Source: Arthonia radiata (lineage: Eukaryota; Ascomycota; Arthoniomycetes; Arthoniales; Arthoniaceae). Taken from it: 64,000 bases of DNA. The stretch's first letter is position 1; each line of letters opens with the position of its first letter. Shown here in pieces: positions 21,532-39,278 of the stretch. The DNA is taken from NCBI GenBank assembly GCA_002989075.1, contig PSQN01000006.1, forward strand, positions 1,426,001 through 1,490,000, written 5' to 3'. The position numbers were made by a program, and so were the translations under genes. The notes beneath the pieces are model-generated. The model worked only from the letters and a program-made list of their open reading frames with translations. It searched no databases and was not told where the DNA came from.

Positions 21532-21786
21532 TCAGGCCTGGTAGTCCGGCGGCGGCTCGTAATCAGGCGGCGGAGGGCCAGCCTGCTCATAAGGCGGCGG
21601 CCCGTATCTGCGCACCAGCCTGCACGCCGGACACCGCCGGAACGGCTGGCTCAGGCCCATTCTGAGGTCTGAGGGTGCGCCGCACCCGCTGTGGAAGATG
21701 CGCTCGCGGAGACAGCGCACACTGTGGTCTGTGACGGGCCAATGCCCGCACCAGTACTTCGTTGTGAGGGAGATGTGGTAGCACAT
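21532..21786 (-). CDS. Met-Cys family member 1, with PPxY tail, 84 aa
   Basis: Intronless. The N-terminal part carries the family ligands: Met-Cys, then YWCGHWP, an isolated Cys, GCG and the closing CPAC (about residues 52-55). The last ~25 residues are Pro/Tyr-rich and contain one PPPY and two PPDY tetrapeptides, all fitting the PPxY consensus bound by WW domains, for example those of NEDD4/Rsp5 ubiquitin ligases. A small zinc-binding adaptor for a WW-domain protein is therefore possible, but this is inference. No signal peptide or membrane segment. It lies convergent to ams1. Confidence 0.7.
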   Translation of the reverse strand: MCYHISLTTKYWCGHWPVTDHSVRCLRERIFHSGCGAPSDLRMGLSQPFRRCPACRLVRRYGPPPYEQAGPPPPDYEPPPDYQA

Positions 21787-23238
21787 GTTGCAAGTTTATA
21801 TGTGGTGTTTGCTATACTAACGTGTGCTGGGGAACAGTCTGTCTACAATGTGATTTTGGTCACTTGGGGAGGGCAAGTGGCTTACGTCAGCTAATGGTAG
21901 GGTTGTTGCTGGGCCAGAGGGATGACACGTGCTGGTGTTTAGAAAGAAACACGAACAGCTTGCGCGCTTTCGTCTGGACCTTCTTGAGGTCAATTTTGCG
22001 CGCACGCCGTCAGAATAATTGGCGAATTCCGCTGATTATAATGCTCTCACTATCATCCTGCCATACTGGTCTGATATTCCGCCAAAGCACAGCAATTCCC
22101 GCCCTGTCGAGCCTTCGGAATACCTTCACGAGTTCTCGCACTATTCCTCCGATCTTTGACTTCTCACAAACCTATTCACGCCACATGCTCTTTTGAAAGG
22201 TTGCGGTACATCAGCAGCATTACGGTACAGCATTCCTCCACTGCGGGCTCATCGGCAAGCGCGCCATCTCCTCAGAGTCGAGCTTCAATTCAGTGCGGAT
22301 CCGCATTCGCTGCTCAAAAGCACGATTCAATGGCTGATCTTGTTCGTTAGGCACAGGTCGCTGCACAGCAATGTCACTGGGTCTCTGCGATCCAAATTTC
22401 GCCGCTAAACGACCATGCCGGGTTCTCGGAGCTCGCGCACGATCACTGCTACCATATTCGATTATTGCTCCACGCTATTACGAGAACCCACATACTCTCA
22501 TACTGTTCTGGACGACAACATCTACTTGCGAAATTCAGATCCTCGAGCATGGAACGCCTTTCGAAATTCTCTCTACAAGGCTCTGGAGCGCCGACGGCGG
22601 CACGATCGAATGCAAAGTCCCGGTCACCCTTAGTTTGCCGACCCCTTGAGACGCTGTTGCGAATGAAAAGGGCGCACATTACGATACGCGCGTTCTCACG
22701 ACCCGGTTCGCAAAATAAAATCGAGATGGCATCGTTAAAAGCAAGGTCTTCGACTCAGGTTGACGTTGTGGCCAGTAAACAAGAAGTTATAGCTCTGAGG
22801 GATGGAGTGTGTTCCCAAGCGTCTTACGGAGACTGTCATACGTCCAGACTCTCTCCACATCAAGCAAAAATCACGAGAAAGCATCGGCGCAGTGGGAGGG
22901 AAGAGTTTTGTGCAATCATGCAATTGAACTAGGGTCTGGGATACTGCTAATCGGAGAGGGCCTTGCGCTATTCAAACAACAAAGCGAGCCTGCTTCGGCG
23001 AAGACATGCGTCTTGCCCTATTTGAAGGTGGGTGTAAGAGCTCATCCAGCAGTCTCCAACACCGAACGTTCGTCCCATTTGTGTGTGTTTGTGCAAAGTC
23101 AGCGTGACAACCCTGTCGATTGCCCCAAGCCGACCAGACAAACGCCGCCGCTTTCTCCAATCCGTGGACCAGGGAGGTCTCTTTGTCATTCTAGTCCTGT
23201 TCATTTAGAAAGTGCTAGGAAGCTTGATCGCTGTCCAT
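21787..23238. other. Spacer inside the Met-Cys cluster
   Basis: No gene I can support. A 72-aa frame at 22415-22633 (+), with a helical, Arg-rich end, is the only one with protein-like composition; it has no family or splice evidence. Confidence 0.35.
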
Positions 23239-23565
23239 TCAATCTTCGTCATCATCATCAGTGTCATTATACTCCTCAGACAGCTCGACAGACTCCTCAG
23301 CCCCATCGTCAACGAACGGCACCTGTCTCTCGAGCGAGCCACCGCAGTCGGTGCACTTCTCGTTCGGCGCTTCCTGGATGCGGTAGTACTTGGTGACGTG
23401 TTTCACGAAAGCCCAGCGACACTCCCCGTCTCCTCGCTCTCTCACCGCGCATTCATAGAGTTCAGGCCGCAGAGTGTTCGGTTCGAGGACGTAGTGGCGG
23501 CTGGCGCGGAAGATGGAGTGACCGCAGCCGGGTGCGACCCAGAGGATGCGCTTGACGAAGCACAT
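23239..23565 (-). CDS. Met-Cys family member 2, 108 aa
   Basis: Intronless from the ATG at 23565; the frame is open upstream, but the family's Met-Cys start fixes this codon. Ligands in order are Cys2, CGH (residues 14-16), two isolated Cys in the middle and CTDC near residue 80. The tail is strongly acidic (a run of Glu/Asp ending DTDDDDED). It is the closest relative of the member at 27627-27947: both read MC..R.....AP.CGH.IF...H.VLE.N and have C-x2-CGG.L. An acidic tail on a probable zinc module would suit binding to basic proteins, but no function is known. Confidence 0.72.
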   Translation of the reverse strand: MCFVKRILWVAPGCGHSIFRASRHYVLEPNTLRPELYECAVRERGDGECRWAFVKHVTKYYRIQEAPNEKCTDCGGSLERQVPFVDDGAEESVELSEEYNDTDDDDED

Positions 23566-24514
23566 GGCGACTGTTAGAGTACTGAGCCGTGGAAGAGTGT
23601 TGATGGGTGTGTCGTTCGTGCACGTGTTCAGGGATGTCGACGGCGGTAGAATGGATTTGCGATTATGGATCACCCAGCCAGTGTGGGTGGCTGACTTGAG
23701 GCGCGTGTTTCCGTGAGTTATGACAGTGATTGAAAACGCCGACACGAGGGTTGGGGGAGGAGATGCAGGTAAGATGACCGAAGTAGATTCTGTAAATTTG
23801 ATGTCTGATGGCTGACGTTAGCACAGTCTTTGAGCGAGCTTTGACGAATTACAAACTTGCCCGAAGTCTTATCGATTCCTTGTGACGCGAGCGAACCGCT
23901 GCGTTTGCCTGTCCGAACAGAACAAAGGCGCCACTTGAGTGGGGAATCGTGCATCAAGAGCAGCTGCAAGAGATCGATTGAAACAATCGCACGATGTGAA
24001 GAGAGGGTCAAGTCGAAATCAGCAGATTGAATTCTTGGAGCTTTCACTTGAGATGTCTACCTCACGCTAGGATCCGGAAAATAAACCGACTAGCACTAAT
24101 TAGGGTACGTCTAATTCGATGTCAGCCAAAAGTGAAGACAATGCAGGGAGACGCCAATATTGGCAGTGGAAAGCGGCTTGTGATATCACTTAAGTGCAGG
24201 CTCCCAAATCGATAGCAAACCCGTCCGTGCTCTCCAGCCTTCTCTCTATCTGATCATCGTATCGCTCTCTTCGTCAGCCTTTCGCCACACTCGACAACGC
24301 TCAATTCTCGACCGTCTACAATCACAGCAGCGACGATACCTATTGTAAGGTTCCTTTCCCTCCTCTCAACAAGTTTGAAGTATTGCAGCTGTAACTTGCG
24401 GCCGCAAAAGTACTTCTGGTCCCGGTGCAGACGCAACGCTAACCAAGAGCCCATAGGCCTTCTCAACACCAATCCCACCACACCAAAGCACCCGCAGCCG
24501 TTCTCACCAGCACA
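23566..24514. other. Divergent spacer between members 2 and 3
   Basis: Carries the promoters of two divergent family genes; no other gene seen. Confidence 0.45.
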
Positions 24515-24877
24515 ATGTGCTTCAGATCCCGCTTCTGGACCTACTACATGTAAGCGGCAGAGCCTCCAAGCCTTCCCCCATCTCCCCTCCCGGTATCCTA
24601 CTGGCGCGCCTCACTCAGCTGCAACCACAACGTCCCCACCATCTCCTTCACCATCCCGTGCGAAGCTGCGAAAGCGCGCAACAGCTTCTGCAACAGGGCC
24701 CGACAGCGCCAGCCACTCGCCATCAACCTCGAGCGACACTGCCCCCTCTGCCACGCTGTGCTGCCGGGCTGGTACCCCGGCGAGGTTTTGGATACGGATC
24801 TGCGTGTGCGGATGACGGATCGGGGCGGCGCGGTTCATAGGAAGAAGATTGAGGCGTGGATGGAGGGTGTTTGGTAG
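24515..24877 (+). CDS. Met-Cys family member 3, two exons, 97 aa
   Basis: Exon 1 is only 35 nt (24515-24549) and exon 2 is 24619-24877. The 69-nt intron has a GTAAGC donor and TCAG acceptor and is phase 2. Splicing places the C-x-H ligand pair (CNH) immediately after the junction. Then come TIPCEAAK, another Cys, and the closing CPLC. The C-terminus is charged and ends ..KIEAWMEGVW. Member 4 has the same exon-1 length, donor sequence, splice phase and TIPCEAAK block, which strongly supports this exon model. The start lies in ACCAGCACAATGTGC, the same start context as member 6. Function unknown; zinc binding inferred. Confidence 0.72.
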
Positions 24878-25532
24878 CTTGAGGTAAGCTAAGCGTTGGG
24901 CCAGCTGCGAGTGCTGGAGCTAATTGGGTGTTGATAGATTCTGCGGAGAGCGCCGGTGGAGTGATGCGACCTTGCTGCGGCGGTATGAAGGGGAGATACT
25001 CTTCCACGGCATAAGGGGGAGTTGCGGGCTTCGAGCAATACTATAGGATCAGACATCTTCTTGATACCTTTCTCTTCCTCAACGCGCGCTTCTTAGCTTC
25101 TACTCGTGACTCCTCACAACATTTGTCTCCCCAGGGTGACGCTCAGCATGAATGGACATTGATTGACATTGAAAACTTGAAGCAAAGTAAAGATACGTCA
25201 TCGTCGTGCTGTACCTCAAAGGCAAGTGCACGAACCCGAAAATGAGGCAAGACAGCTGACCATACCACTCGCTCTGCATCTCTTTTACCGGATACAAGGT
25301 TCCTAAAGAATTGAATAATCATGTTGATGCCTACGTCGCAGAGGTTGTGCTAATCTCAATAGGTATCTCTTTGCGCAACACAGACACGCTTGCACCATTT
25401 CCAGCAGGGAGATGCGAGTGGCGACTATATTGACATCGTTAGGGCGTGATTGCAGCAGCTCCCCTCGCAATATAAAATCTTGCTTTCCCCTTGAGCTTCT
25501 CCTGCCTCTCTACTCGTCACGGTCAAGCCTAA
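24878..25532. other. Spacer between members 3 and 4
   Basis: Nothing supported; short frames on both strands only. Confidence 0.45.
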
Positions 25533-25607
25533 GACATTGCCCAGCAAGAAATTGCCCAGCAAGACATTGCCCAGCAAGACATTGCCCATCAAGACATTGC
25601 CCAGCAA
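25533..25607. repeat. 15-bp minisatellite, five copies, ending at a start codon
   Basis: Five tandem copies of GACATTGCCCAGCAA with two single-base variants. The array ends one base before the ATG of member 4 (25609), so it forms its immediate 5' leader. Near-identity of the copies means a young array. Confidence 0.9.
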
Positions 25608-25608
25608 G

Positions 25609-25947
25609 ATGTGTTTCAAACTGCGCTGGATGACCATCTAACTGTAAGCGAGCCTGCCAACGGTTCTTGTCAAGGAGTTTGTACTGACAATCTGCTCCAG
25701 CTGCGAACACGTCGATCGTTTCATGTCGGAGACGATCCCGTGCGAGGCTGCTAAACAGCGTGGCACCACTTGCGCCACGATCACTCAGCGCGAGCCGATC
25801 GTCACCCGCCCCAACCGTCATTGCAATGACTGTCGTAACAAGAACCCGGGCGCCTATCCCGACGATGAGATCGATGACGACGAGATGGCCAAACACGGCG
25901 GCAAAAACAACCACGACAAGGTCATGGCGTGGATGAAGAAGGTCTAA
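25609..25947 (+). pseudogene. Met-Cys family member 4, in-frame stop in exon 1
   Basis: The closest relative of member 3. Exon 1 is 25609-25643 (35 nt, as in member 3) and exon 2 is 25701-25947; the 57-nt intron has a GTAAGC donor and CTCCAG acceptor. Exon 2 keeps every family feature: CEH, TIPCEAAK, a middle Cys, CNDC, an acidic stretch and an AWM..V ending. Exon 1 reads MCFKLRWMTI, then TAA where member 3 has TAC (Tyr), and then the splice. As sequenced, only a 10-residue peptide would be made. Either the gene is freshly lost, or the base is a sequencing error, or translation starts downstream at Met 25723 without the CxH motif. The otherwise clean frame favours a very recent change. Confidence 0.6.
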
Positions 25948-26659
25948 GGACACTTCTCTAGTGCACACACGAGCTCTGCGTAAGGCATGCCTTAGGCCAG
26001 GTACTACGGCTCCTAGCTGACCTACCATTGACAGGCATTCGGCAAGCGCCAGCCACATTCTCTTCCACTCCCGCTGCCCAACGCACAAGGACTGCTCTTC
26101 GCCGGCTTCCACAATCTCCAGCCATCGAGCAACATCTGTACGACGTATCACGAATGTCCATCAGCGGCTTGTCACGAACCACGAGTCTTCAAACCCCTTG
26201 TTAAGGTCAACACTCTACCAAAGAGCTTCGCTCTATGAGAGTAGCACGCACGCCCCAATCCAGCATGATCAACTGAATTTGTCGTGCGCCAGCTGAGAAA
26301 ACCACAATCAGACCGCCAGTCAACCTGCCGATGGCTCAACCATGGCGGCGACATCATTCAGAGCATCACAAACTATCACTACCTGTTCATACCACATGTA
26401 GACTACTATGCCCTCCAGAAGCTAACGCTCGGGCACAAGTAGCAGATCTAGCTGCGCTGGAGTCTCTTTCAATAGTCTTCTAGGTATGTCACAGAATCAG
26501 ATACCTATCTCACTCCTCGGATTCTCACTACGCGCGCTTCTTGAGTTCTGCCCGTGATGTCTCCCGCTATCTGCTGCAGTAGGTCGACGCTCGTGAGGTG
26601 CAGAAACTAACACTGGTGTAGAGACTCTACGTATAGCAATCCACTATCTTCTCTGGCTT
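25948..26659. other. Spacer downstream of member 4
   Basis: No gene seen. Confidence 0.45.
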
Positions 26660-27560
26660 TTCAACTCCGGCGAAACGCTGCAAGCTCAGCAAACAAGATG
26701 CGAAGCTCCTTTTGCGACTCCTTTCTCAGGAGTCGACCGCGCTATAGCTGGAGTAGTATGCAGTTATCTTCATTCAGCGCAGTACGACTTTAGCTGGCCA
26801 CTTGTTCGCTTGGGTTTGTCGCAACTTGAGGGTATTGGTCATGAGACTGCCGGTGAGAGATCTTTTGGTAGGAGTCGACAGTGCTGTGGATGGAGTGGTC
26901 TGTAGGCAAGTTCAATCAGCGCTCTCTGATCCCACGTAGCGTTCTCATTCTGGCGGGATAACACAGCTTCAGGAGATTTACCGCAAAATGACGGTGGAAA
27001 GACTTGTCGGCAGAGGTTCAGCATGCTGTAGGTCGAGCATATTTCGAACCTATCCATGCAGCAGACTGCGGGTCTTGCCCGACCTTCAATTCCTTCGATC
27101 TTTCACAGGTTCAGGAAATGGGAGCTGGAGCGCGTGCTCGGAGAAGTATTGAAAGCGCTCGAAGGCGCTGTAGGTCGAGGACCATGCAGATACATACTTA
27201 TAGCAGACTGTAGGTCTTGTCCAACGTCTTGACCCCTTCGGTATATCACAAGTTCAGGGAATGGAGTGGAAAAGTCAGGTCGGGAGACACATTACGAGGC
27301 TGCGACGGTGCTGGGGTTATCCGGATTCATTCAGCAGACTGGGGCTTTCTAGACCTTTGCATACCTGCGAGATACCACATCTTCAGGTAATGGGGCGTGA
27401 AAGTCTTATTCGGAGAATGATTGCGAGGTTGCGACGGTGCTGGGGTTATGGAGACCGGATCAGTAGACCAGGGTCCCTCCTGGTCTACACCTGCATGCGA
27501 AATACGACACCTTCAGGGAGTAGGAGCTGGAACGCGTGTCAGAAGACCAAGTAACAAGCT
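26660..27560. repeat. Decayed tandem repeat, ~130-145 bp unit, six to seven copies
   Basis: A recurring landmark, (C/G)TTCAGG(G/A)(A/T)ATGG-like, appears near 26825, 26968, 27110, 27252, 27381 and 27510. It is followed each time by a ...CGGAGA...GCGACGGTGCTG(G/T)...-type block. Spacing shrinks from ~144 to ~129 bp. The two units starting at 27252 and 27381 are most alike (both contain GCGACGGTGCTGGGGTTAT). Earlier copies are much eroded. A partly open + frame (27261-27554) repeats with the units, but I see no evidence that it is a gene. Confidence 0.65.
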
Positions 27561-27626
27561 TCGGCGCTGCTGTGCTTCGAGACCCTCAATCACAGCACCA
27601 CATCCATACGAGCTAACTCGAATCTA

Positions 27627-27947
27627 CTAGCTCTTCTCAAACATCGCGACCACCCTCGCCATCTTCATCCTGATCTCTCTATCCGCCTCGCCACTCACGG
27701 ACAAGTCGCCACCGCAGGCCGTGCACAGCCCCTCTCCTTCTTTCCTGAGCAGCCCAACATCCCAGTACTGACTGCGCTCCATCTGCTGGTCGTAGAAGTC
27801 TGCACAGACTTCCACGTTCTGCTGTGCCCCAGCACACTTCATGATGAGCGGACCGCCGTTGTTTTCGAGCACGAAATGAGTGTCGGAGCTGAAGATGCGG
27901 TGGCCGCAGCGCGGCGCGTAGTAGAAGATGCGAATGAGGTGGCACAT
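27627..27947 (-). CDS. Met-Cys family member 5, 106 aa
   Basis: Intronless from the family-type start at 27947; the frame upstream is open but the added N-terminus is Pro/His-rich and unlike any relative. Ligands are Cys2, CGH (residues 14-16), isolated Cys in the middle, and CTAC followed by GGDL. The tail is helical and charged (REIRMKMARVVAMFEKS). It is the sister of member 2, with the same spacing from Met-Cys to CGH and the same VLE.N and CGG.L blocks, but lacks member 2's acidic tail. Function unknown. Confidence 0.72.
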   Translation of the reverse strand: MCHLIRIFYYAPRCGHRIFSSDTHFVLENNGGPLIMKCAGAQQNVEVCADFYDQQMERSQYWDVGLLRKEGEGLCTACGGDLSVSGEADREIRMKMARVVAMFEKS

Positions 27948-28610
27948 TTTGAGAGCCGCTGCAATGGGAGGGTGAGGGTGTGGGTGGGGTGGTTCTGGGT
28001 TGACGCCGGCGGAGGGGGTGCGCTGGAGCGAGATTCGGGAGGCTATGGAGGAGATGGGTCTGCTGATGGTGCTTATGTTAGTAATCTGCCTCAGAGGAGC
28101 CGGATAAGCTTGTCTACTGACCGGATTCGTTGACGCGGAATTGACGGCGTAGAAGATCCAGACGCGTTCTTGAGCTTGGAGAGAAATGCTTACTGCTGTA
28201 GAACTTGGTAGCCTAGGATGAGTAAATTGACCTGGTAAATCAGGGTCTAGCACAACAAGAGTCGCCCTCACTTCTCCGGCAACCAGGTGGAAACAGTCAA
28301 CAAACCACGTCATTGTCCCAACAACCGCTGCAGCCCCGAATGTCAGGCCAAAAGCCACTTGAGGGTTCTGCCTGGTGTAAATTTGCCTGTGAGTGATCCT
28401 GTCTTGTCTCTTCGCGCACGTCTATAAGCACTCCCATAAGCACATAGATACTAGCACACAGCACAGTGAGTCTGAAGCCTCCCCTCTTGTACTGTCAAAT
28501 GTATTTTGCGGCTTGCCAACTGGCATCGCAATGTCAACTCACACAAGAATCTGACCTAAGGAAATGCAAATACTGACATTCCGCAGCACAATTCACCAGC
28601 GACCAGCACA
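27948..28610. other. Divergent spacer between members 5 and 6
   Basis: Shared upstream region of two divergent family genes; no other gene supported. Confidence 0.45.
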
Positions 28611-29125
28611 ATGTGCTGGCAACAAGACTTCGTGCTGCTCGGCGCCTGCGGGCATCCAATCGAGCAGTTCGTGCAGTACGAGTTCTGGTAAGCGCTCCTC
28701 ATCTTCGTCCCTTTCCTCTAGCAAACCCCCTTGTCCTCCCCACATCTAACCACAACGCCTTGACTCCTTCTTTCCTGGCGTGGGCTCCACCTCACCTCCT
28801 ACCACCCCTACCATGAGTGCGGGATACTGACACAAAGCCCCTTAGCCCCCCAGCCCTCCAAGCGCGCGCCCTCTGCGCCGCGCCGCAACCAAGGCCGGCG
28901 GCAGAGGGCCGCCAACCCGGTGGAAGAGTGTGCGGGGGCTGCGCGGGCCCGGAAGAGCGGGAGAGCGTGGAGGCGGGGGCGGCGCAGGAGGAGGTGGAGT
29001 TGGAGGAGGCGGCGAAGAGGGTGGGGGAGTGGCGGGCGGAGTGGCGGGCGGAGTGGTTGATGGGGTGGCGGGGTGCGGTGAAGCGGTTCGGGCGGTGGGT
29101 GGTCCGCAAGGCGAGTGAGATCTGA
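28611..29125 (+). CDS. Met-Cys family member 6, two exons, 118 aa
   Basis: Exon 1 is 28611-28687 and exon 2 is 28846-29125. The 158-nt intron has a GTAAGC donor, a TACTGAC branch site and a CTTAG acceptor; it is phase 2 and creates a Cys at the junction. Exon 1 holds Met-Cys and ACGH; exon 2 supplies an isolated Cys and CGGC. The C-terminal ~65 residues are a charged amphipathic helix with the motif WRAEWRAEW and a basic end. Exon 2 is very GC-rich, so long antisense frames (28792-29590, -) open up opposite it; these are shadows. The intron is placed after the CxH, unlike in members 3 and 4. Confidence 0.62.
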
Positions 29126-29297
29126 GGAGAGTGTGTGGCGGCTGCGGCCTGTTGTTTGTTTGAGTTTGTGCATGGTTTGTCTGTCGGTGTGTCTGGGGGT
29201 TTGCTGGTGGGTGGGGTTGCTTTTGTGTGGAATTTGACCGTGTTGTTCTTGAGTGTGTCTTTGGTTTCTTGAGTGCCCCGTAAGGTTTTGGATGCGG

Positions 29298-29543
29298 CTA
29301 CGCTTCTTCCTCGCTGGTATGAGTGCTCTTTCTTGGCTTCGATTTCGCAGAGCGTTTGCGAGCCTCGAAATCCTTGACGGCACATTCTTTGCAAGGCACG
29401 GGTGGGTACTTGTATTCGAAGAAGACAGGTACGGAAGCACATATTGCGCTGAGCATGGCTGCTGGCCCACAAGAGCGCGCGGTGGTGTGGTGTGTAATGT
29501 GAGGGCAGCGCCAGAAGAGGATCGTAGTGGACTGGAGACACAT
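29298..29543 (-). CDS. Met-Cys family member 7, 81 aa
   Basis: Intronless, starting at 29543 with Met-Cys. The ligand pair here is CPH instead of CGH (RCPHITHH), then a Cys, another Cys, and the closing CKEC. The tail is Lys/Ser-rich and ends in a short acidic run (SEEEA). The layout is nearest to member 1 in length and spacing, but without the PPxY tail. The frame is open 13 codons upstream; the family start was preferred. Function unknown, metal binding inferred. Confidence 0.65.
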   Translation of the reverse strand: MCLQSTTILFWRCPHITHHTTARSCGPAAMLSAICASVPVFFEYKYPPVPCKECAVKDFEARKRSAKSKPRKSTHTSEEEA

Positions 29544-29629
29544 TGTAGGCGTTTGTGGAAGTTTAAGCTCGCTGAGTGACAATGTTGCATGAGTCTAGGA
29601 AGTCAGCAGGGCGCGAAAATGGATATATG

Positions 29630-30950
29630 TCAGATGGAACGTGATTGCTTGCGGGTTGGCACAATGAATGCACAGTGAATCTCGATTTGCGAACAAAAGT
29701 TGCGCTGCTTGACTGCGTAGCAAAGCCACAGCATCTCATTCACTGCCAAATGGTCTGAAACCCCGCCAGCTCTTCCACGCTGATGGGATCTCCACGCAAG
29801 TGGAACTCTGCGTGAGTATGTATGGCTGAACGCCTGCCCCCCTTCCGGGCAGCAATCCACTCCCAGACTAAGGTGTGTCAGTAAATTTATTGTTATGCCG
29901 GCGCGAAGCGGCCTGGAACACGTACGTCTCTCAATACAAGCCCTGTTGGGCTGCGCCACCCACTGCCATTGCCTTAGCAGTTCCTCCTCGGCCAGTGGGC
30001 CTGTGTAGCTAGCGCTGTCTGCAGGCAGCCAGAGTTCCAGGTTGTCGCTTGGGTAGCAGCTCCTCTTCGACTCTTCGTCCAACCGGCAGCAAATGCAGCT
30101 TCCCACCAGCGACAGCCCACCATGCTCACTCACGAAAAACACGTCCGGAAGATTGTGACGAGCATGGCGCTCGCATGTCGGCCAGGTAGACCGGAAGTAA
30201 GCCCACGGCTTAGGAGAGACGACAGGCTGTATTTGCTGATAGACGCTGCTGATAGAATTTTCTGGCTCGCCGGGTCTGGGCAGCTGCACTGCCACTGTGA
30301 AGGAGATTGGGGAGGCGGTGTTGCTGCTGTTGAAGCGCACGCGTAGAACTTGGTAACGGGTTACGATGGGTTTGCCGTCTGCGGTTGCCTTTGAGAATTG
30401 GTAGACGCCGGCGTGGGTCCAGATCATGATGTATTCGGGGTAAATAGCCTTGCCCAGGAAGCGCAAGTCTGGCAATCCGGCCTAAGAGCATGATGTCAGC
30501 TTTGCCTAGATTAGAGAATTTGCAGCGCCAGCATTTGGTAACTGGAAAGCAGTTGCTCAGGCCCAAAACAAAAAGACGTGCGTGCTGTTGACTCACCATA
30601 CTGATAGATCTGTTGTCCTTGACGGATTGCTTTGAGTGAGCAGAGAGCTGGATTGTTGTCTGCCTGGAGATTCGTGAAAACGATTGACGCCGGGAAATTG
30701 GCTCCAAAAGACCCTGATATTGATAGATCTGTGACGATGCGTCGAGCTCGAAGTTAAAGACTACGCTTCTGCGAGTTGATCGCTGGATGTGAGCAGAGAG
30801 CTTGCTTGATGTCTGCTTGGAGAAGGGTGAATTTGATTGACGCGGAGGAACCGGCTTAGAGAAACCCTTAGATCGAAAATTTCGCAAAGGTGCGTCGGGC
30901 TCGAAGTGGCAGGCAACCATTTTGTAAGTGCCACACTTGACCTGAGCCAT
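29630..30950 (-). CDS. Hypothetical protein with internal duplication, 401 aa
   Basis: Not recognised. Exon 1 is 30950-30597 and exon 2 is 30481-29630. The 115-nt intron is phase 0, with a GTGAGT donor, AGCTGAC branch site and CTTAG acceptor, and it joins two frames that each stop just beyond the splice site. Exon 1 contains two tandem copies of a ~51-residue unit (F E.DA..., PRRQS-type, S...Q...LSAH..S...), also visible in the DNA with a 153-bp period. Exon 2 has scattered Cys (CICC) and no known domain. The frame intactness and clean splice support a real, lineage-specific gene; the C-terminal part is the least certain and could hide another intron. Confidence 0.45.
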
Positions 30951-32532
30951 CTTGTCGCTCTCCCGCAGATTTTCGCAAACATTTTGCTATGTCTAGGGCG
31001 AATTCTCAGGCGTCACCAGCATCCATGGAAGAACCGCACAATCAGATTGCAATGCAAGCGATCGTACTTATTTGCAGGAATTATGTCGCCATCTTCCGAT
31101 ATAGGTGCTTTGAGCCGATTTCCTACATGATGCAAAATTGCCTTTGGGTGGTTTCCGCCTGCCAGACAGCCGATAATCACCATATTCGAAGCTAGCAAGC
31201 TCTGCGTTCATGATTGCTTGATATACAAACAAATTGTCAAATAAAAAATGTTGGTGGTGCGGGTCTAAAGATGATGCAGATGGCAGCTTGAGAGGAGGAT
31301 GTCAAATCGCAGGTGGACGCGGACTGCGCTAGAAAAGGGGCGATTGTTTTTTACGTGTAACTTTCCATCTCTCATTTTGCCGTCCCGTCTCGTCCCAAGA
31401 CCTAACCTGAGACCACAACCATCTATCTATACCTGTGCTTTCAAATCTGTCACGATGACGGACACACTGGTAATGCGACCTCTATTCGATAAAGCTTGAA
31501 AGTAGCATATTTTGTTGCGCGATATGGCACGCGGTGTCGTTGCTTTGGAAATTGCCATCAAAGCGCAGACCTGCGCGCTGAATCCGACTCGACCTTTTCA
31601 AGCGTACTGATCGGTACCGTGATAGAGGATAATGCCTCTAATGCTTGCGATCAAGGTGGCGCAGTGCCAAAGCGCCCAGACTTCTTGCCATCCCCACTAA
31701 TGCCAACTGCTGCACGGTTCGCCAACGGTATCCAGAAAGCTCTTGTGTCCTAGATCCGAGCTGTCTTCCTTCGAGCTTGCTGCCGGATACTCCAATGCAG
31801 CAGGATAAGTCAAATACTTGCGTCAGAGATGGCGAAGTGCCAGAGCGCCCAGATTCTTACCATCTTTATTCATGCCAATTGCTGCGCGGTTTGCTGCAAC
31901 GCCGACCCCAAGCCTGGCCTATACGAGTGCGCTCGAGGGTCATGAACTGTCCATTCGATGGAGAGAATAGTAGAATGCGTCTGTATTGGGGGACCCTAGA
32001 AGAAGATGGCAAACGAATGCAGCACTGTACGTTCAGGCCTCCAGGCGCGAGCAAACGGTAAAGGTGGATGGCGGTTCCCCAAGTGATTCACGGCTACCTA
32101 GCCTCATTTCACCTTCGAAAAAGTCTTGGCTTCAAAGATTGTTGGGCTCTCTTTGCCTCCTTCCATTCGACAGCAGCTACAGACTATCAACAACAAATTC
32201 GACACCCATCGAAGAGAATCACGCCAACACTTGTTCAGGAAGTCCGCAGCACTCGCCACCTTGCATCCTGCTCAGTTGAAGCTCTCCATCGAACCAGTTG
32301 TGAGTCTCAATCAAATCTCCCCTCCTTGTTACGGCGATATCTGCACCAGAGTATCTATCTTTCAAGATACCACAAACTCCTCATCGAAATGCTCAGGCAC
32401 CCTTCTCCGCTTTCACAGCGCCTGCCAACGAATTCTGACCTTTCAATGTAGTGCTACTCTGTTAAAACAAGGCTGTCGAAGCTCTCATACGTCTCCCAAG
32501 CCCCGAACAAGCACTGCTCGAAAGCACCTACA
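30951..32532. other. Gene-free spacer with a degenerate duplication
   Basis: No supported gene. Contains the 31625-31905 repeat and the upstream region of family member 8. Confidence 0.4.
31625..31905. repeat. Degenerate tandem duplication, 173-bp period
   Basis: Two copies of a block containing AGTGCCA(A/G)AGCGCCCAGA, then ATGCCAA(C/T)TGCTGC(A/G)CGGTT. The first starts near 31658 and the second near 31831. Divergence is about one base in six by eye. Non-coding as far as I can see. Confidence 0.65.
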
Positions 32533-32889
32533 ATGTGCAACATCCACGAGCGCGTCCTCCGCGGGACCTGCGGCCACACAATCTCCCGAGGCTGCATCCG
32601 CATGGAATACAAGGTCAATATGCCCAGCGGCGAGACGCGCATCTACAGCGACGTCTACCTCGAGCCATGTGAGGCGGCGCTGGAAGAGTCGCAGCGCCAG
32701 GGCAGGGATCTCCGCTGCTCGGCACAAACGGTGGTACCGATTCCAATACAAGCCGGATATGCGTGCGCGCTGTGCCGCGTCGTTGCCAATCGTCAGCGTG
32801 AGGCAGAGAGGCGAGCGAGGGGCGAGGCGGACGAGCATGTGCGCGGTGGGATGATGGAGGGGATGAGGACGGATAGGGATGGGCTTTGA
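32533..32889 (+). CDS. Met-Cys family member 8, 118 aa
   Basis: Intronless. It starts Met-Cys-Asn-Ile-His, with CGHTISRGC near residues 13-21, an isolated Cys in LEPCEAAL, another Cys, and CALC near residue 80. The tail is charged (RQREAERRARGEADEHVRGG) and probably helical. It is the most isolated member, about 3 kb from the next one, and has a longer stretch between CGH and the closing C-x2-C. No signal peptide. Family membership rests on the ordered Cys/His skeleton and the Met-Cys start; function unknown. Confidence 0.7.
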   Translation: MCNIHERVLRGTCGHTISRGCIRMEYKVNMPSGETRIYSDVYLEPCEAALEESQRQGRDLRCSAQTVVPIPIQAGYACALCRVVANRQREAERRARGEADEHVRGGMMEGMRTDRDGL

Positions 32890-36022: not shown

Positions 36023-37039
36023 TCATACTGCAGACTTCTCAAGATCGCATGGTTTCTCGCGATCGTATGGCCACTCACCCTTTTCAAGTAGAGTGCCAAT
36101 CGTCGCCACTTCATATTTCTCGTTCAACATTTCAAGGTTTTCCGCCAGCAAATCTTTCGTCCATTCTCTGCCGTCATGGTTGATGATGATGCTTCCGGAT
36201 CGGGTAACTGTCCTTCTCATATGGAGGGCATTGAGCCATTTCCACGATATCTGCGGATCGTGCGGATAGACGTTTCCAAGAACGATCGTGAGTCCCGCCT
36301 TGCGGGCGGCATTGCACACCCTGTCAGTGTAGTGGCCACTACCCGGTCTGAACAGCTTTCTACCGCGTTTGATGCCGCACTTTCTGTAGGCCTTTTCATA
36401 TGCCTTATCAATGAGCCGCTCAGTGCGAATGAGCTGATCGTAAAGCGCCTTTTCACTCCCGCCCTTGCCACACAACCTGCCAAACCAGGCCGCAACGATC
36501 CAGCTGGCTTCATCGGCCTCGGCGTGGTTGCCCAATTCATGTCCTTCCAAGATCATTCTGTAAAGAACATCGGGATTTTTTCTAAGGTTGTCCAACTTCT
36601 CTCTCAGATTCTTCAATTTCTTGTTTAATTTTTTCGCATCTGCCGAGCTCGTGCTTGTCCCGGATTTAATTCCCTTCTCGCACTCAGTGATATCTTTCTC
36701 GCACTCGGCGATTTTCCAGGGAATCATATTTTCGTACTCCCTGATGTGCTCGCCAATAACAAAGAATGTAGCGTGTGACTCCTTTTCTGCCAGGATCTGG
36801 AGTATGTCATCGGTGTAGTTTGTGGGCGCATCATCTAGCGAGAGCGCTACGAGATCCTTGCCGCCTTTACCTTTTCCTTCTGTATGTTTGACATAATAGA
36901 GAGCTTTCCCGCTCACTGCAAAGAAGTAGATGAAGAAATGAGGCTGAAACCATAGAGGGGTACCAAGGAATAGAATCGTGAGTAAAATAGCTATCGTCAC
37001 ATATGTTCCATTCCTGAAAGAACGTGCAAGAGCTGACAT
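36023..37039 (-). CDS. Membrane-anchored CE4 polysaccharide deacetylase with coiled-coil insert, 338 aa
   Basis: Single exon. Residues about 13-45 are hydrophobic (signal anchor), so the catalytic domain would face the ER lumen or cell surface. NodB-fold motifs are visible: motif 1 as SLDDAP, motif 2 as HELGNH and motif 3 as FRPGSG; HDPQIS and IIINHD complete the domain. The family removes acetyl groups from chitin-like or peptidoglycan-like polymers; the substrate here is unknown. Between the first motif and HELGNH lies a ~50-residue Lys/Glu-rich insert (about 109-158) predicted by eye to form a coiled coil. The neighbouring paralog (37839-38696) lacks it. The gene is noticeably richer in A/T codons than that neighbour. 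Confidence 0.82.
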   Translation of the reverse strand: MSALARSFRNGTYVTIAILLTILFLGTPLWFQPHFFIYFFAVSGKALYYVKHTEGKGKGGKDLVALSLDDAPTNYTDDILQILAEKESHATFFVIGEHIREYENMIPWKIAECEKDITECEKGIKSGTSTSSADAKKLNKKLKNLREKLDNLRKNPDVLYRMILEGHELGNHAEADEASWIVAAWFGRLCGKGGSEKALYDQLIRTERLIDKAYEKAYRKCGIKRGRKLFRPGSGHYTDRVCNAARKAGLTIVLGNVYPHDPQISWKWLNALHMRRTVTRSGSIIINHDGREWTKDLLAENLEMLNEKYEVATIGTLLEKGEWPYDREKPCDLEKSAV

Positions 37040-37838
37040 TGTTAGTATACCACTGCGCTACAGAGACGCTGTTGCTCGAGTTGGAGCCAGAAGTTAAAAG
37101 ACAGAGAGACTTTGCGACAACGTGGCCGCAGCCCTCCCGCGCCATCCGAAAGCCGTACGATTCGAAACGATCTGGGCGTTTTCCCCGCGTCAGAATTCGT
37201 CGCTTTCGTTGTAAAGGCCGTTCGCACTATGCGACAGCCTTCGCGCTCCGAGAATAAATATCATTGTGTTTCCGACAAGTCCGCCGGCACGCTGGCGCAG
37301 TTCAGAATTTGTCATCGAACAGGTTGTCGTTCGCAAGGCGTACTTCGCCGGAGCTGCCAAGACCCGGCGCAAGGTGGTCAGCCTGCATACTGCGACCGAA
37401 ATACCCTTTCCTGGCCTAATTTTTCATGTATAAGCCGGCGCAGTTGCGATCCGGCCGTCGAACAGGCTGTTCAATAAGGCGTAATTCGCTCGCTTGTGCT
37501 GCTGGACGGAGTGGAGAATGTAAGACGGAAGAAGGACGGGACGAGATGAGAATAGGAGAATCTGAGGGTTAGGGTTAGACCGCTACCGCGGGCCAGTACT
37601 TGTTTGGGAACCCGCGAGGTCAGTATAGCAGAGCATATGGAGGCGTGAAAGGCTCGAAGTACTGTCAATATCGGGCACGATATGCTATGAAGGCTGTAAG
37701 ACGGTAATGCTTTGATCGAGTGGGGTATCGCAAAGGCCATAGCATCCTCAGAGGGTTCGCGAAAGAAACGGAGCAGTATTGGCTCTTTGAGACCACGTTC
37801 ACTACCTGCGGTATGCTGTCTACGCGCCACGCGCCATC
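37040..37838. other. Intergenic between the two CE4 deacetylase genes
   Basis: No gene seen. Includes two adjacent telomere-type units (GGGTTAGGGTTAG, near 37566-37578). Confidence 0.45.
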
Positions 37839-38696
37839 TCAGTCATCCTTGCCCTTGCTCGCGGGCCCGCGCTGCGACTCCTGGCTGTGCGCCTCCCCCT
37901 GCGCCGCCTTCTCCCCCTCCGCCACAAGCTGGCTGATCGTTACGATCTGGTACCCCCTGCGCTTCAGCTCCGGCAGCACCTTTGCCAGAGTCTTCACGGT
38001 CCACGCGCGGCGATCGTGGTTGATGATGATGCTTCCAGGTCTGACCATACTCAGAACATGCGCGGCGTTCAGAGAGGGCACACTGATCTGCGGATCGTGT
38101 GGGTAGACGCTACCGAGGGCGACGCGCAATCCCTGACCTTCCACCACGTTGATGAGACGGTCACTGAAGAATCCTGAACCAGGGCGGAACCACTTGCGAG
38201 CGCGCTGCGTGCCGATGATGGTGTATGCGTCGACGATGCTTTGTTCGACGACTCTGATTTGCTTCTCCAGCTCGGGGCTGGAAAGGGATCTTGAGGGCTC
38301 GTCGTACTGTGCGTGATTTCCGAGTTCGTGTCCGTCTTTGACGAGGTCGCTGAGGAGCTCTGCACGGCTTTGGACTTGGCTGCCGATGACGAAGAAGGTG
38401 GCGTGGGCGTCGTTGGCTTTCAGAATAGCTGCGATCTCCATGGTGTGTGCTGAAGGGGCATCGTCGATTGAGAGCGCGACAAATTTGCGGTCGGGTGGGA
38501 GTGGAACGTGCCAGAGAACCTTGGGGTAGCGGTAGGCGAGGTAGCGGATGAGGAGATGCGGTGGCTTGTAGACGAAGTAGAACGGCGAGATCAGAGTGAG
38601 GAAGACCAGTGCGATGATGACGAGCACTGCCATTCGCGAGCGGCGAGCACGGCGGCGAAGTTTAGGCGGGAGCCAGAAGAGGCGGAGAGGAACCAT
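37839..38696 (-). CDS. Membrane-anchored CE4 polysaccharide deacetylase, 285 aa
   Basis: Single exon, tandem paralog of the gene at 36023-37039. A basic N-terminus (LRRRARRSR) precedes one transmembrane segment (about residues 22-44), giving type II topology. NodB motifs are SIDDAP, HELGNH and FRPGSG, followed by YPHDPQIS and IIINHDRRAW, all shared with the paralog. The D-D-A-P form of motif 1 replaces the usual D-D-G-P but keeps both Asp, so activity is plausible. The C-terminal ~25 residues are polar and variable. The frame is open to an ATG at 38783, which would add 29 residues; I chose 38696 because the anchor then sits near the N-terminus as in the paralog. Confidence 0.82.
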   Translation of the reverse strand: MVPLRLFWLPPKLRRRARRSRMAVLVIIALVFLTLISPFYFVYKPPHLLIRYLAYRYPKVLWHVPLPPDRKFVALSIDDAPSAHTMEIAAILKANDAHATFFVIGSQVQSRAELLSDLVKDGHELGNHAQYDEPSRSLSSPELEKQIRVVEQSIVDAYTIIGTQRARKWFRPGSGFFSDRLINVVEGQGLRVALGSVYPHDPQISVPSLNAAHVLSMVRPGSIIINHDRRAWTVKTLAKVLPELKRRGYQIVTISQLVAEGEKAAQGEAHSQESQRGPASKGKDD

Positions 38697-39278
38697 GACT
38701 GCTACTAGGTCGGTGATGGCATGAGTGTCGAAGTCTTTGTTTTCAGTAGAACAGGGCAAAGTTTTGTTTCGACTGGTTTCCAAGGCGATGGTGGTAGCCG
38801 GCTACCGAAATTGCCAAGACTCGGTCGCAAGTTGAGAAATGACCATTCTTTAACTCCAGACTCCCAAGACAGCAGGGGGAGGGCTTAAGCGCGTAAGTAA
38901 GAATCTCGGTGTCTTTTCCAATGATTTTCAATCAATTTTAGTAAATCTTGATGTCTTACCGGGCTTGCGCATGGTTGAGAGGAGAGGGAGGGACGGCTTA
39001 GTTGGTCTCGACGAGAATAGGGGTTGAGTTTGGGGCGGTATGTGCACCAGCCCGGCGCTTTCTAATGCTGTCTTGTGAAGTTCAGATCACAACATCGCTA
39101 TGTTTGACACGACAATGCTCATCAATGCACCAGAGCTTCGAAGTTTGAATGCCCAACTTGCTGGCGAAGGACAAGGAGGTCCTGACCCACCAGCGTGCAC
39201 CTAAGAAAGATCGACCTGCTCCTCACATTCGATCGAGTGCATCAACAACCATGCCTGGGATGTATGGTTCTCTCTCTC
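38697..39278. other. Intergenic between the second CE4 gene and cap2
   Basis: No gene seen. Confidence 0.5.

What the first reader, a model, noticed from the sequence alone, without database searches (positions are those of the whole stretch)
21532..32889. Eight-gene cluster of an apparently uncharacterised Met-Cys / C-x-H / C-x2-C microprotein family
Eight short genes within 11.4 kb, on both strands, all begin Met-Cys and keep an ordered skeleton of C-x-H, one or two lone Cys and a closing C-x2-C. Loop lengths and tails vary widely (acidic, Pro/Tyr-rich, amphipathic, Lys-rich). Conserved ligands with free tails look like a metal-stabilised knot displaying variable extensions. Mixed orientation and two sister pairs imply repeated local birth. 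I know of no named family with this signature; that it is undescribed is an inference.
Basis: partly seen in the sequence, partly recalled or inferred. Interest (0 to 1): 0.92.

Follow-up and report, generated by a model that had tools for sequence, protein, structure and literature searches.

The report
Cluster of fungal zinc-knot-like microproteins
A short stretch of what looks like a fungal chromosome carries eight related small genes whose proteins keep the same probable metal-binding residues while almost everything else has changed, which suggests a shared metal-held core with exchangeable tails.

Summary
Eight small genes at 21532-32889, on both strands, share one skeleton: Met-Cys, x10-11, C-x-H, x9-30, Cys, x9, Cys, x15-26, C-x2-C. 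Shuffled sequence almost never gives it, and third-position G+C separates the eight from 16 chance reading frames nearby.

Two corrections. The loop between the two lone cysteines is not variable: it is nine residues in 7 of 8 members. Gene 4 has an in-frame stop just before its intron. Genes 3 and 6 show the skeleton only when spliced. The sister pairs 2/5 and 3/4 are confirmed. No ninth member was found in the 64 kb.

Pfam and NCBIfam gave only weak single-member matches. Local likeness to RING fingers and ribosomal bL33 is weak, and the ligand layout fits neither. Structure models were too poor to use. No fungal genomes could be searched, so distribution is untested.

Best reading: cytosolic, probably zinc-stabilised heads with diversified tails, acting as small binding adaptors. 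Gene 1's tail has three PPxY motifs, pointing to WW-domain ubiquitin ligases. Metal binding and adaptor role are inferred.

The parts
21532..21786 (-). Gene 1, intronless, 84 aa. Skeleton C2, C13-x-H15, C25, C35, C52-x2-C55. Tail Pro/Tyr-rich with three PPxY motifs (residues 63, 73, 79).
   Evidence: leave-one-out only marginal
23239..23565 (-). Gene 2, intronless, 108 aa; strongly acidic tail (net -14). Sister of gene 5.
24515..24549 (+). Gene 3, exon 1 (phase-2 donor GTAAGC at 24550)
24619..24877 (+). Gene 3, exon 2; spliced protein 97 aa. Sister of gene 4.
25609..25643 (+). Gene 4, exon 1: starts Met-Cys, has in-frame TAA at 25639-25641 directly before the donor
25701..25947 (+). Gene 4, exon 2: C-x-H to C-x2-C and tail, open throughout
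27627..27947 (-). Gene 5, intronless, 106 aa. Sister of gene 2.
28611..28687 (+). Gene 6, exon 1; the intron splits the codon of the first lone Cys
28846..29125 (+). Gene 6, exon 2; spliced protein 118 aa, long tail with Trp/Arg-rich repeats
29298..29543 (-). Gene 7, intronless, 81 aa, Lys/Arg-rich tail. Skeleton spacing nearly the same as gene 1; membership rests on the skeleton
   Evidence: fails the leave-one-out profile test
32533..32889 (+). Gene 8, intronless, 118 aa; longest first loop (30), Cys-x15-Cys instead of Cys-x9-Cys, one extra Cys

Best explanation
A lineage of small cytosolic proteins with a metal-stabilised (most likely zinc) head of 60-80 residues and a free, fast-changing tail. 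Six Cys and one His in a fixed order hold the head; C-x-H with the closing C-x2-C would make one complete four-ligand site, while Cys2 and the two lone Cys would form a second, three-cysteine centre. The head serves as a stable platform; the tail of each copy binds a different partner, so the copies act as small adaptors. Gene 1 would dock through three PPxY motifs on WW domains, such as those of the Rsp5/NEDD4 ubiquitin ligase. Local duplication and rapid divergence make new copies. Shown here: the gene family, the skeleton, the duplications, and silent variation at ligand codons. Inferred: metal, site partition, cytosolic location, adaptor role.
For: Six ligand columns are invariant in all 8 aligned members (gene 4 by exon 2) and Cys2 in the 7 in which it was aligned; gene 4's exon 1 also starts Met-Cys. 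6 of 7 ligand columns use both synonymous codons across members, so the constraint is on the protein. Outside the ligands the 26 non-sister pairs of the 28 share only 2-22% of aligned residues. The nine-residue Cys-Cys loop recurs in 7 of 8 members, including the spliced gene 6. N-termini lack a long hydrophobic run: 7 N-termini scored, longest run without charged or strongly polar residues 4-9 in the first 25; conserved Cys2 and C-x-H lie where a signal peptide would be cut off. Invariant His and a reducing cytosol favour metal over disulphides (inference). Three PPxY in gene 1's tail: 66 of 20000 shuffles of that tail reach three, and no other six-frame stretch of 60 aa or more in the window has more than one. 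PPxY motifs of fungal adaptors bind Rsp5 WW domains (passages of PMC8050425). Sister pairs show dN 0.60 / dS 0.93 and dN 0.76 / dS 1.23 by NG86, i.e. fast protein change.
Against: AlphaFold models of genes 1 and 2 had mean pLDDT 49.6 and 46.7, so clustering of the ligands is untested. Only gene 1 of 8 has PPxY motifs. Gene 1's tail is Pro-rich, so PPxY motifs come more easily there. Six Cys could in principle pair as three disulphides. dN/dS was computed for two pairs only, YN00 failed, and dS is near the range where it is unreliable. Gene 4 is interrupted, so not every copy need be working. No expression data.
Confidence: 0.4

Rival explanations
1. Secreted, disulphide-linked small cysteine-rich proteins (effector-like or antimicrobial) that leave the cell by a non-classical route; the six Cys form three disulphides.
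For: Small, Cys-containing, clustered and fast-diverging, as many fungal secreted proteins are (general knowledge). Six conserved Cys is an even number.
Against: No signal-peptide-like N-terminus in the 7 N-termini scored with a simple hydrophobicity measure (no dedicated predictor was available). The invariant His of C-x-H has no role in disulphides. Met-Cys at the very start is invariant where a signal peptide would stand.
Confidence: 0.12
2. A degenerate, shortened RING-type domain: seven of the eight RING ligands in the same order (second to eighth), possibly working with E2 enzymes.
For: Order Cys, C-x-H, Cys, Cys, C-x2-C is that of RING ligands 2-8 (recalled). Gene 8 matches zf-RING_UBOX at E 0.0014, 19 bits against a cut-off of 25.2 and Roquin-1 at E 0.12; the profile of 6 members (A4) touches Arkadia at E 1 and TRIM30 at E 9.9.
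Against: The first ligand is missing, His to the next Cys is 9-30 residues and the two lone Cys are 9 or 15 apart, whereas RING has about 2-3 and 2 (recalled). Only 1 of 8 members matches the Pfam RING model at E up to 1; the profile of all 8 finds no solved structure at E up to 10.
Confidence: 0.12
3. Oxygen or nitric-oxide sensitive proteins: Met is removed, the exposed N-terminal Cys is oxidised, and the protein is destroyed through the Cys/Arg N-degron route.
For: Met-Cys at position 1-2 starts all 8 genes. Met-Cys proteins are such substrates in plants (start of the abstract of PMC11773813 in the listing).
Against: Cys2 behaves as part of the same fixed-spacing ligand set, which already explains it. 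The listing showed 8 of 47 papers, none with the term 'filamentous fungi' in its text count; no test was made here for the enzymes in this organism.
Confidence: 0.06
4. A metal buffer (metallothionein-like) whose tails are of no importance.
For: Cys content and small size.
Against: Conserved spacing with separated ligands and a His; no dense C-x-C arrays are seen in the eight sequences; large non-Cys loops and tails.
Confidence: 0.06

Closest known systems
RING-type zinc finger (Pfam zf-RING_UBOX, PF13445)
   Same: C-G-H motif after a hydrophobic stretch, closing C-x2-C, ligand order of RING positions 2-8 (RING layout recalled).
   Different: First ligand absent, middle spacings do not fit, match below cut-off and in 1 of 8 members.
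Ribosomal protein bL33
   Same: Gene 3 residues 22-58 align with bL33 chains; best E 0.0031; 15 of 16 hits are bL33.
   Different: Gene 3 has C-E-A-A where bL33 zinc ribbons have C-x2-C (recalled); NCBIfam L33 match was in 1 of 8 members at E 0.071.
Rsp5/NEDD4 adaptors with PPxY tails (for example Bsd2, Tre1/2, arrestin-related adaptors)
   Same: Gene 1: folded head (presumed) followed by several PPxY motifs.
   Different: No arrestin fold or membrane span detected in gene 1 (no Pfam match); 7 of 8 members lack PPxY.
Unnamed ascomycete hypothetical proteins starting Met-Cys with C-G-H and a late C-x2-C
   Same: Recalled impression of the same signature.
   Different: Not tested: no fungal sequence collection was available.

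Membership tests
RING finger | Eight metal ligands, starting with C-x2-C | tested here: not met
   Chain begins at Met-Cys with one ligand; seven conserved ligands
RING finger | Short spacing C-x-H-x2-3-C-x2-C in the middle (recalled) | tested here: not met
   9-30 residues, then 9 or 15
RING finger | Score above the Pfam cut-off | tested here: not met
   Best 19 bits against 25.2, 1 of 8 members
RING finger | Cross-braced fold | tested here: inconclusive
   AlphaFold mean pLDDT 49.6 and 46.7
bL33 / zinc ribbon | Two C-x2-C knuckles | tested here: not met
   Only the closing C-x2-C is conserved
Secreted small cysteine-rich proteins | N-terminal signal peptide | tested here: not met
   Hydrophobicity of 7 N-termini; simple measure, no dedicated predictor
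Rsp5/NEDD4 adaptor | PPxY motifs | tested here: inconclusive
   Three in gene 1, none in the other 7
Rsp5/NEDD4 adaptor | Binding to WW domains and ligase recruitment | not testable with these tools
   Needs a binding assay
Metallothionein | Dense C-x-C / C-C arrays | tested here: not met
   Cys positions of the 8 members (gene 4: exon 2) show none
This Met-Cys/C-x-H/C-x2-C family | Full ordered skeleton | tested here: met
   8 of 8 (gene 4 by two exons with a stop between; genes 3 and 6 spliced)
This Met-Cys/C-x-H/C-x2-C family | Recovered by a profile built without it | tested here: inconclusive
   6 of 8 clearly; gene 1 marginal, gene 7 not; rows were deleted from an alignment made with all eight

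The most novel reading that the evidence does not exclude
A seven-residue, two-site metal fold that starts at the first residue: after Met removal, Cys2 gives both its thiol and its free amino group, standing in for the missing eighth ligand, and the same head has been fitted with many tails, one of which recruits a ubiquitin ligase. This would be a new minimal zinc fold, used as a platform for rapidly evolving adaptors.
Probability: 0.1. Interest if true: 0.8.

Novelty: new variant of a known kind. Interest (0 to 1): 0.5.

Why it matters
Small proteins without a named domain are a large unexplained part of fungal genomes. Here a fixed set of Cys/His survives while neighbouring residues are almost completely replaced (genes 1 and 7 share 1 of 48 aligned residues outside the ligands), and copies sit side by side. 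If the head is a metal-held platform, the cluster is a natural experiment in how new binding functions are tried out, and it gives a signature by which such genes can be gathered across fungi.

Tried and rejected
Four scans of viral contigs and two of genome contigs gave pattern matches but no relative by tblastn; these collections hold viruses and prokaryotes, so this says little about fungi.

Family libraries: Pfam, NCBIfam and PHROGs gave only weak matches, each family in 1 of 8 members; best E 0.0014, 0.071 and 0.018. For several weak Pfam and NCBIfam matches the cut-off was not shown in the member mode. Solved structures: none with the 8-member profile; weak hits for gene 8, gene 3 and the 6-member profile A4. 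bL33 origin of gene 3 rejected: first knuckle missing, other members do not match.

Structure: both AlphaFold jobs gave models below pLDDT 50; no fold search was run on them, since low-confidence models give meaningless matches.

Upstream motifs: 7-mers in 300 bases upstream; the script printed no 7-mer present in 5 or more of 8, so no shared element was found at that setting. The first alignment A2 of five members placed the ligands badly and was not used further. A first alignment query to viral contigs failed for lack of conserved stretches. Literature: ten searches, listings seen, passages of one paper read (PMC8050425); none described this family.
Full report
What is there. The window looks fungal: spliceosomal introns, an Ams1-like GH38 alpha-mannosidase, a uroporphyrinogen decarboxylase and two polysaccharide deacetylases. 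Between the alpha-mannosidase (ends 21175) and the deacetylases (from 36023) lie eight small genes at the coordinates given.

Gene models. Genes 1, 2, 5, 7 and 8 are intronless. Gene 3 has a 69-base intron and gene 4 a 57-base intron at the same place, directly before the C-x-H codons; gene 6 has a 158-base intron that splits the codon of the first lone Cys. Introns of genes 4 and 6 carry a CTGAC branch-like site 17 and 19 bases before the acceptor end; the search found none in gene 3. Splicing gene 6 by open frame and splice sites yields the same Cys positions as gene 3 (C2, C13, C26, C36), which supports the model. Gene 4 reads Met-Cys and then meets an in-frame TAA at 25639-25641, just before the donor. 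As assembled it is interrupted; a sequencing error or a start at the later ATG (25723) cannot be excluded.

Is it more than chance. The full skeleton occurs in the five intronless members and nowhere else; 200 Markov resamplings of the window gave a mean of 0.01. With the Cys-x9-Cys loop required, the stretch from C-x-H to C-x2-C gives 7 hits in 6 members, against a mean of 0.013 in 300 resamplings. These patterns were fitted after seeing the members, so the numbers are descriptive. Independent of the pattern, GC3 is 0.61-0.86 in members, 0.47-0.59 in 16 control ORFs, and 0.54-0.72 in six other gene stretches of the window. A profile of all eight finds no ninth member: all segments below E 0.01 belong to the eight, the next being 0.068 (gene 3's own exon 1) and 0.17. 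Against the family: leaving out gene 7, 9 of 300 of its shuffles score as high, and gene 1 is only just above its best shuffle.

Anatomy. Residues between ligands: Met-Cys to C-x-H 10 or 11 (7 members); C-x-H to first lone Cys 9, 22, 10, 10, 21, 10, 9, 30 (genes 1-8); first to second lone Cys 9 in seven and 15 in gene 8; second lone Cys to C-x2-C 16, 21, 16, 16, 26, 18, 15, 15. For gene 8 an extra Cys (residue 21) was skipped to make this count. Ligand codons vary silently in 6 of 7 ligand columns. Tails run from 27 to 60 residues with net charge from -14 to +3.

Evolution. Two sister pairs are clear: genes 3/4 (40% over 84 aa, E 5e-16) and genes 2/5 (34% over 83 aa, E 5e-10) by tblastn. Each pair is on one strand (3/4 on +, 2/5 on -). 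The other 26 of 28 pairs share 2-22% outside the ligands. NG86 gives dN 0.60 and dS 0.93 for 3/4 (81 codons) and dN 0.76 and dS 1.23 for 2/5 (93 codons); YN00 failed. This is fast protein change, though one method on two short pairs is weak evidence.

How it may work. The proteins lack a long N-terminal hydrophobic run and the conserved residues begin at position 2, so a cytosolic place is likely. There, six Cys and a His in fixed order point to metal, most likely zinc (inference). By analogy with cross-braced domains (recalled), C-x-H could pair with C-x2-C in one complete site, and Cys2 with the two lone Cys in a second. Met before Cys is normally removed (general knowledge), so the free amino group of Cys2 could complete the second site; this is the bold reading and nothing here tests it. 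The tails look like the business end: gene 1 has three PPxY motifs, which 66 of 20000 shuffles of its own tail reach; PPxY motifs of fungal adaptors bind the WW domains of Rsp5 (passages of PMC8050425). Gene 2's tail is strongly acidic, gene 7's Lys/Arg-rich, and genes 3, 4 and 6 end in Trp-containing stretches (sequence).

What it is not. RING: wrong ligand number and spacing, one weak sub-threshold match. bL33: gene 3 alone, first knuckle absent. Classical secreted protein: no signal-peptide-like start by a simple measure. Metallothionein: no dense Cys arrays.

Limits. No RNA data and no fungal genomes could be reached. That the family is undescribed rests on the family libraries and ten keyword searches of open papers, which are a weak test of absence.

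Verdict. A real, coherent and unusual gene cluster with a precise new signature; mechanism inferred; probably one local outburst of a wider unnamed ascomycete family (recalled impression, untested).

Noticed in passing
25531-25609: A 15-base tandem repeat (AAGACATTGCCCAGC, 5.3 copies) ends exactly at the start codon of gene 4.
   Followed up: partly
26719-27473: Degenerate direct repeats between genes 4 and 5: 110-base copies 129 apart (71% identical) and 62-base copies 142 apart (73%), a sign of local duplication in the cluster.
   Followed up: no
24498-28620: Genes 3 and 6 share the start context ACCAGCACAATGTGCT although their proteins are only distantly alike.
   Followed up: no
29630-30427: ORF of 265 aa on the - strand between genes 7 and 8; GC3 0.69 in its first 420 bases, no Pfam match: perhaps an unrelated gene inside the cluster.
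   Followed up: partly
36023-38801: Two polysaccharide deacetylase genes side by side on the - strand.
   Followed up: partly
24620-24790: Gene 3 residues 22-58 resemble ribosomal protein bL33 (E 0.0031); probably chance.
   Followed up: partly
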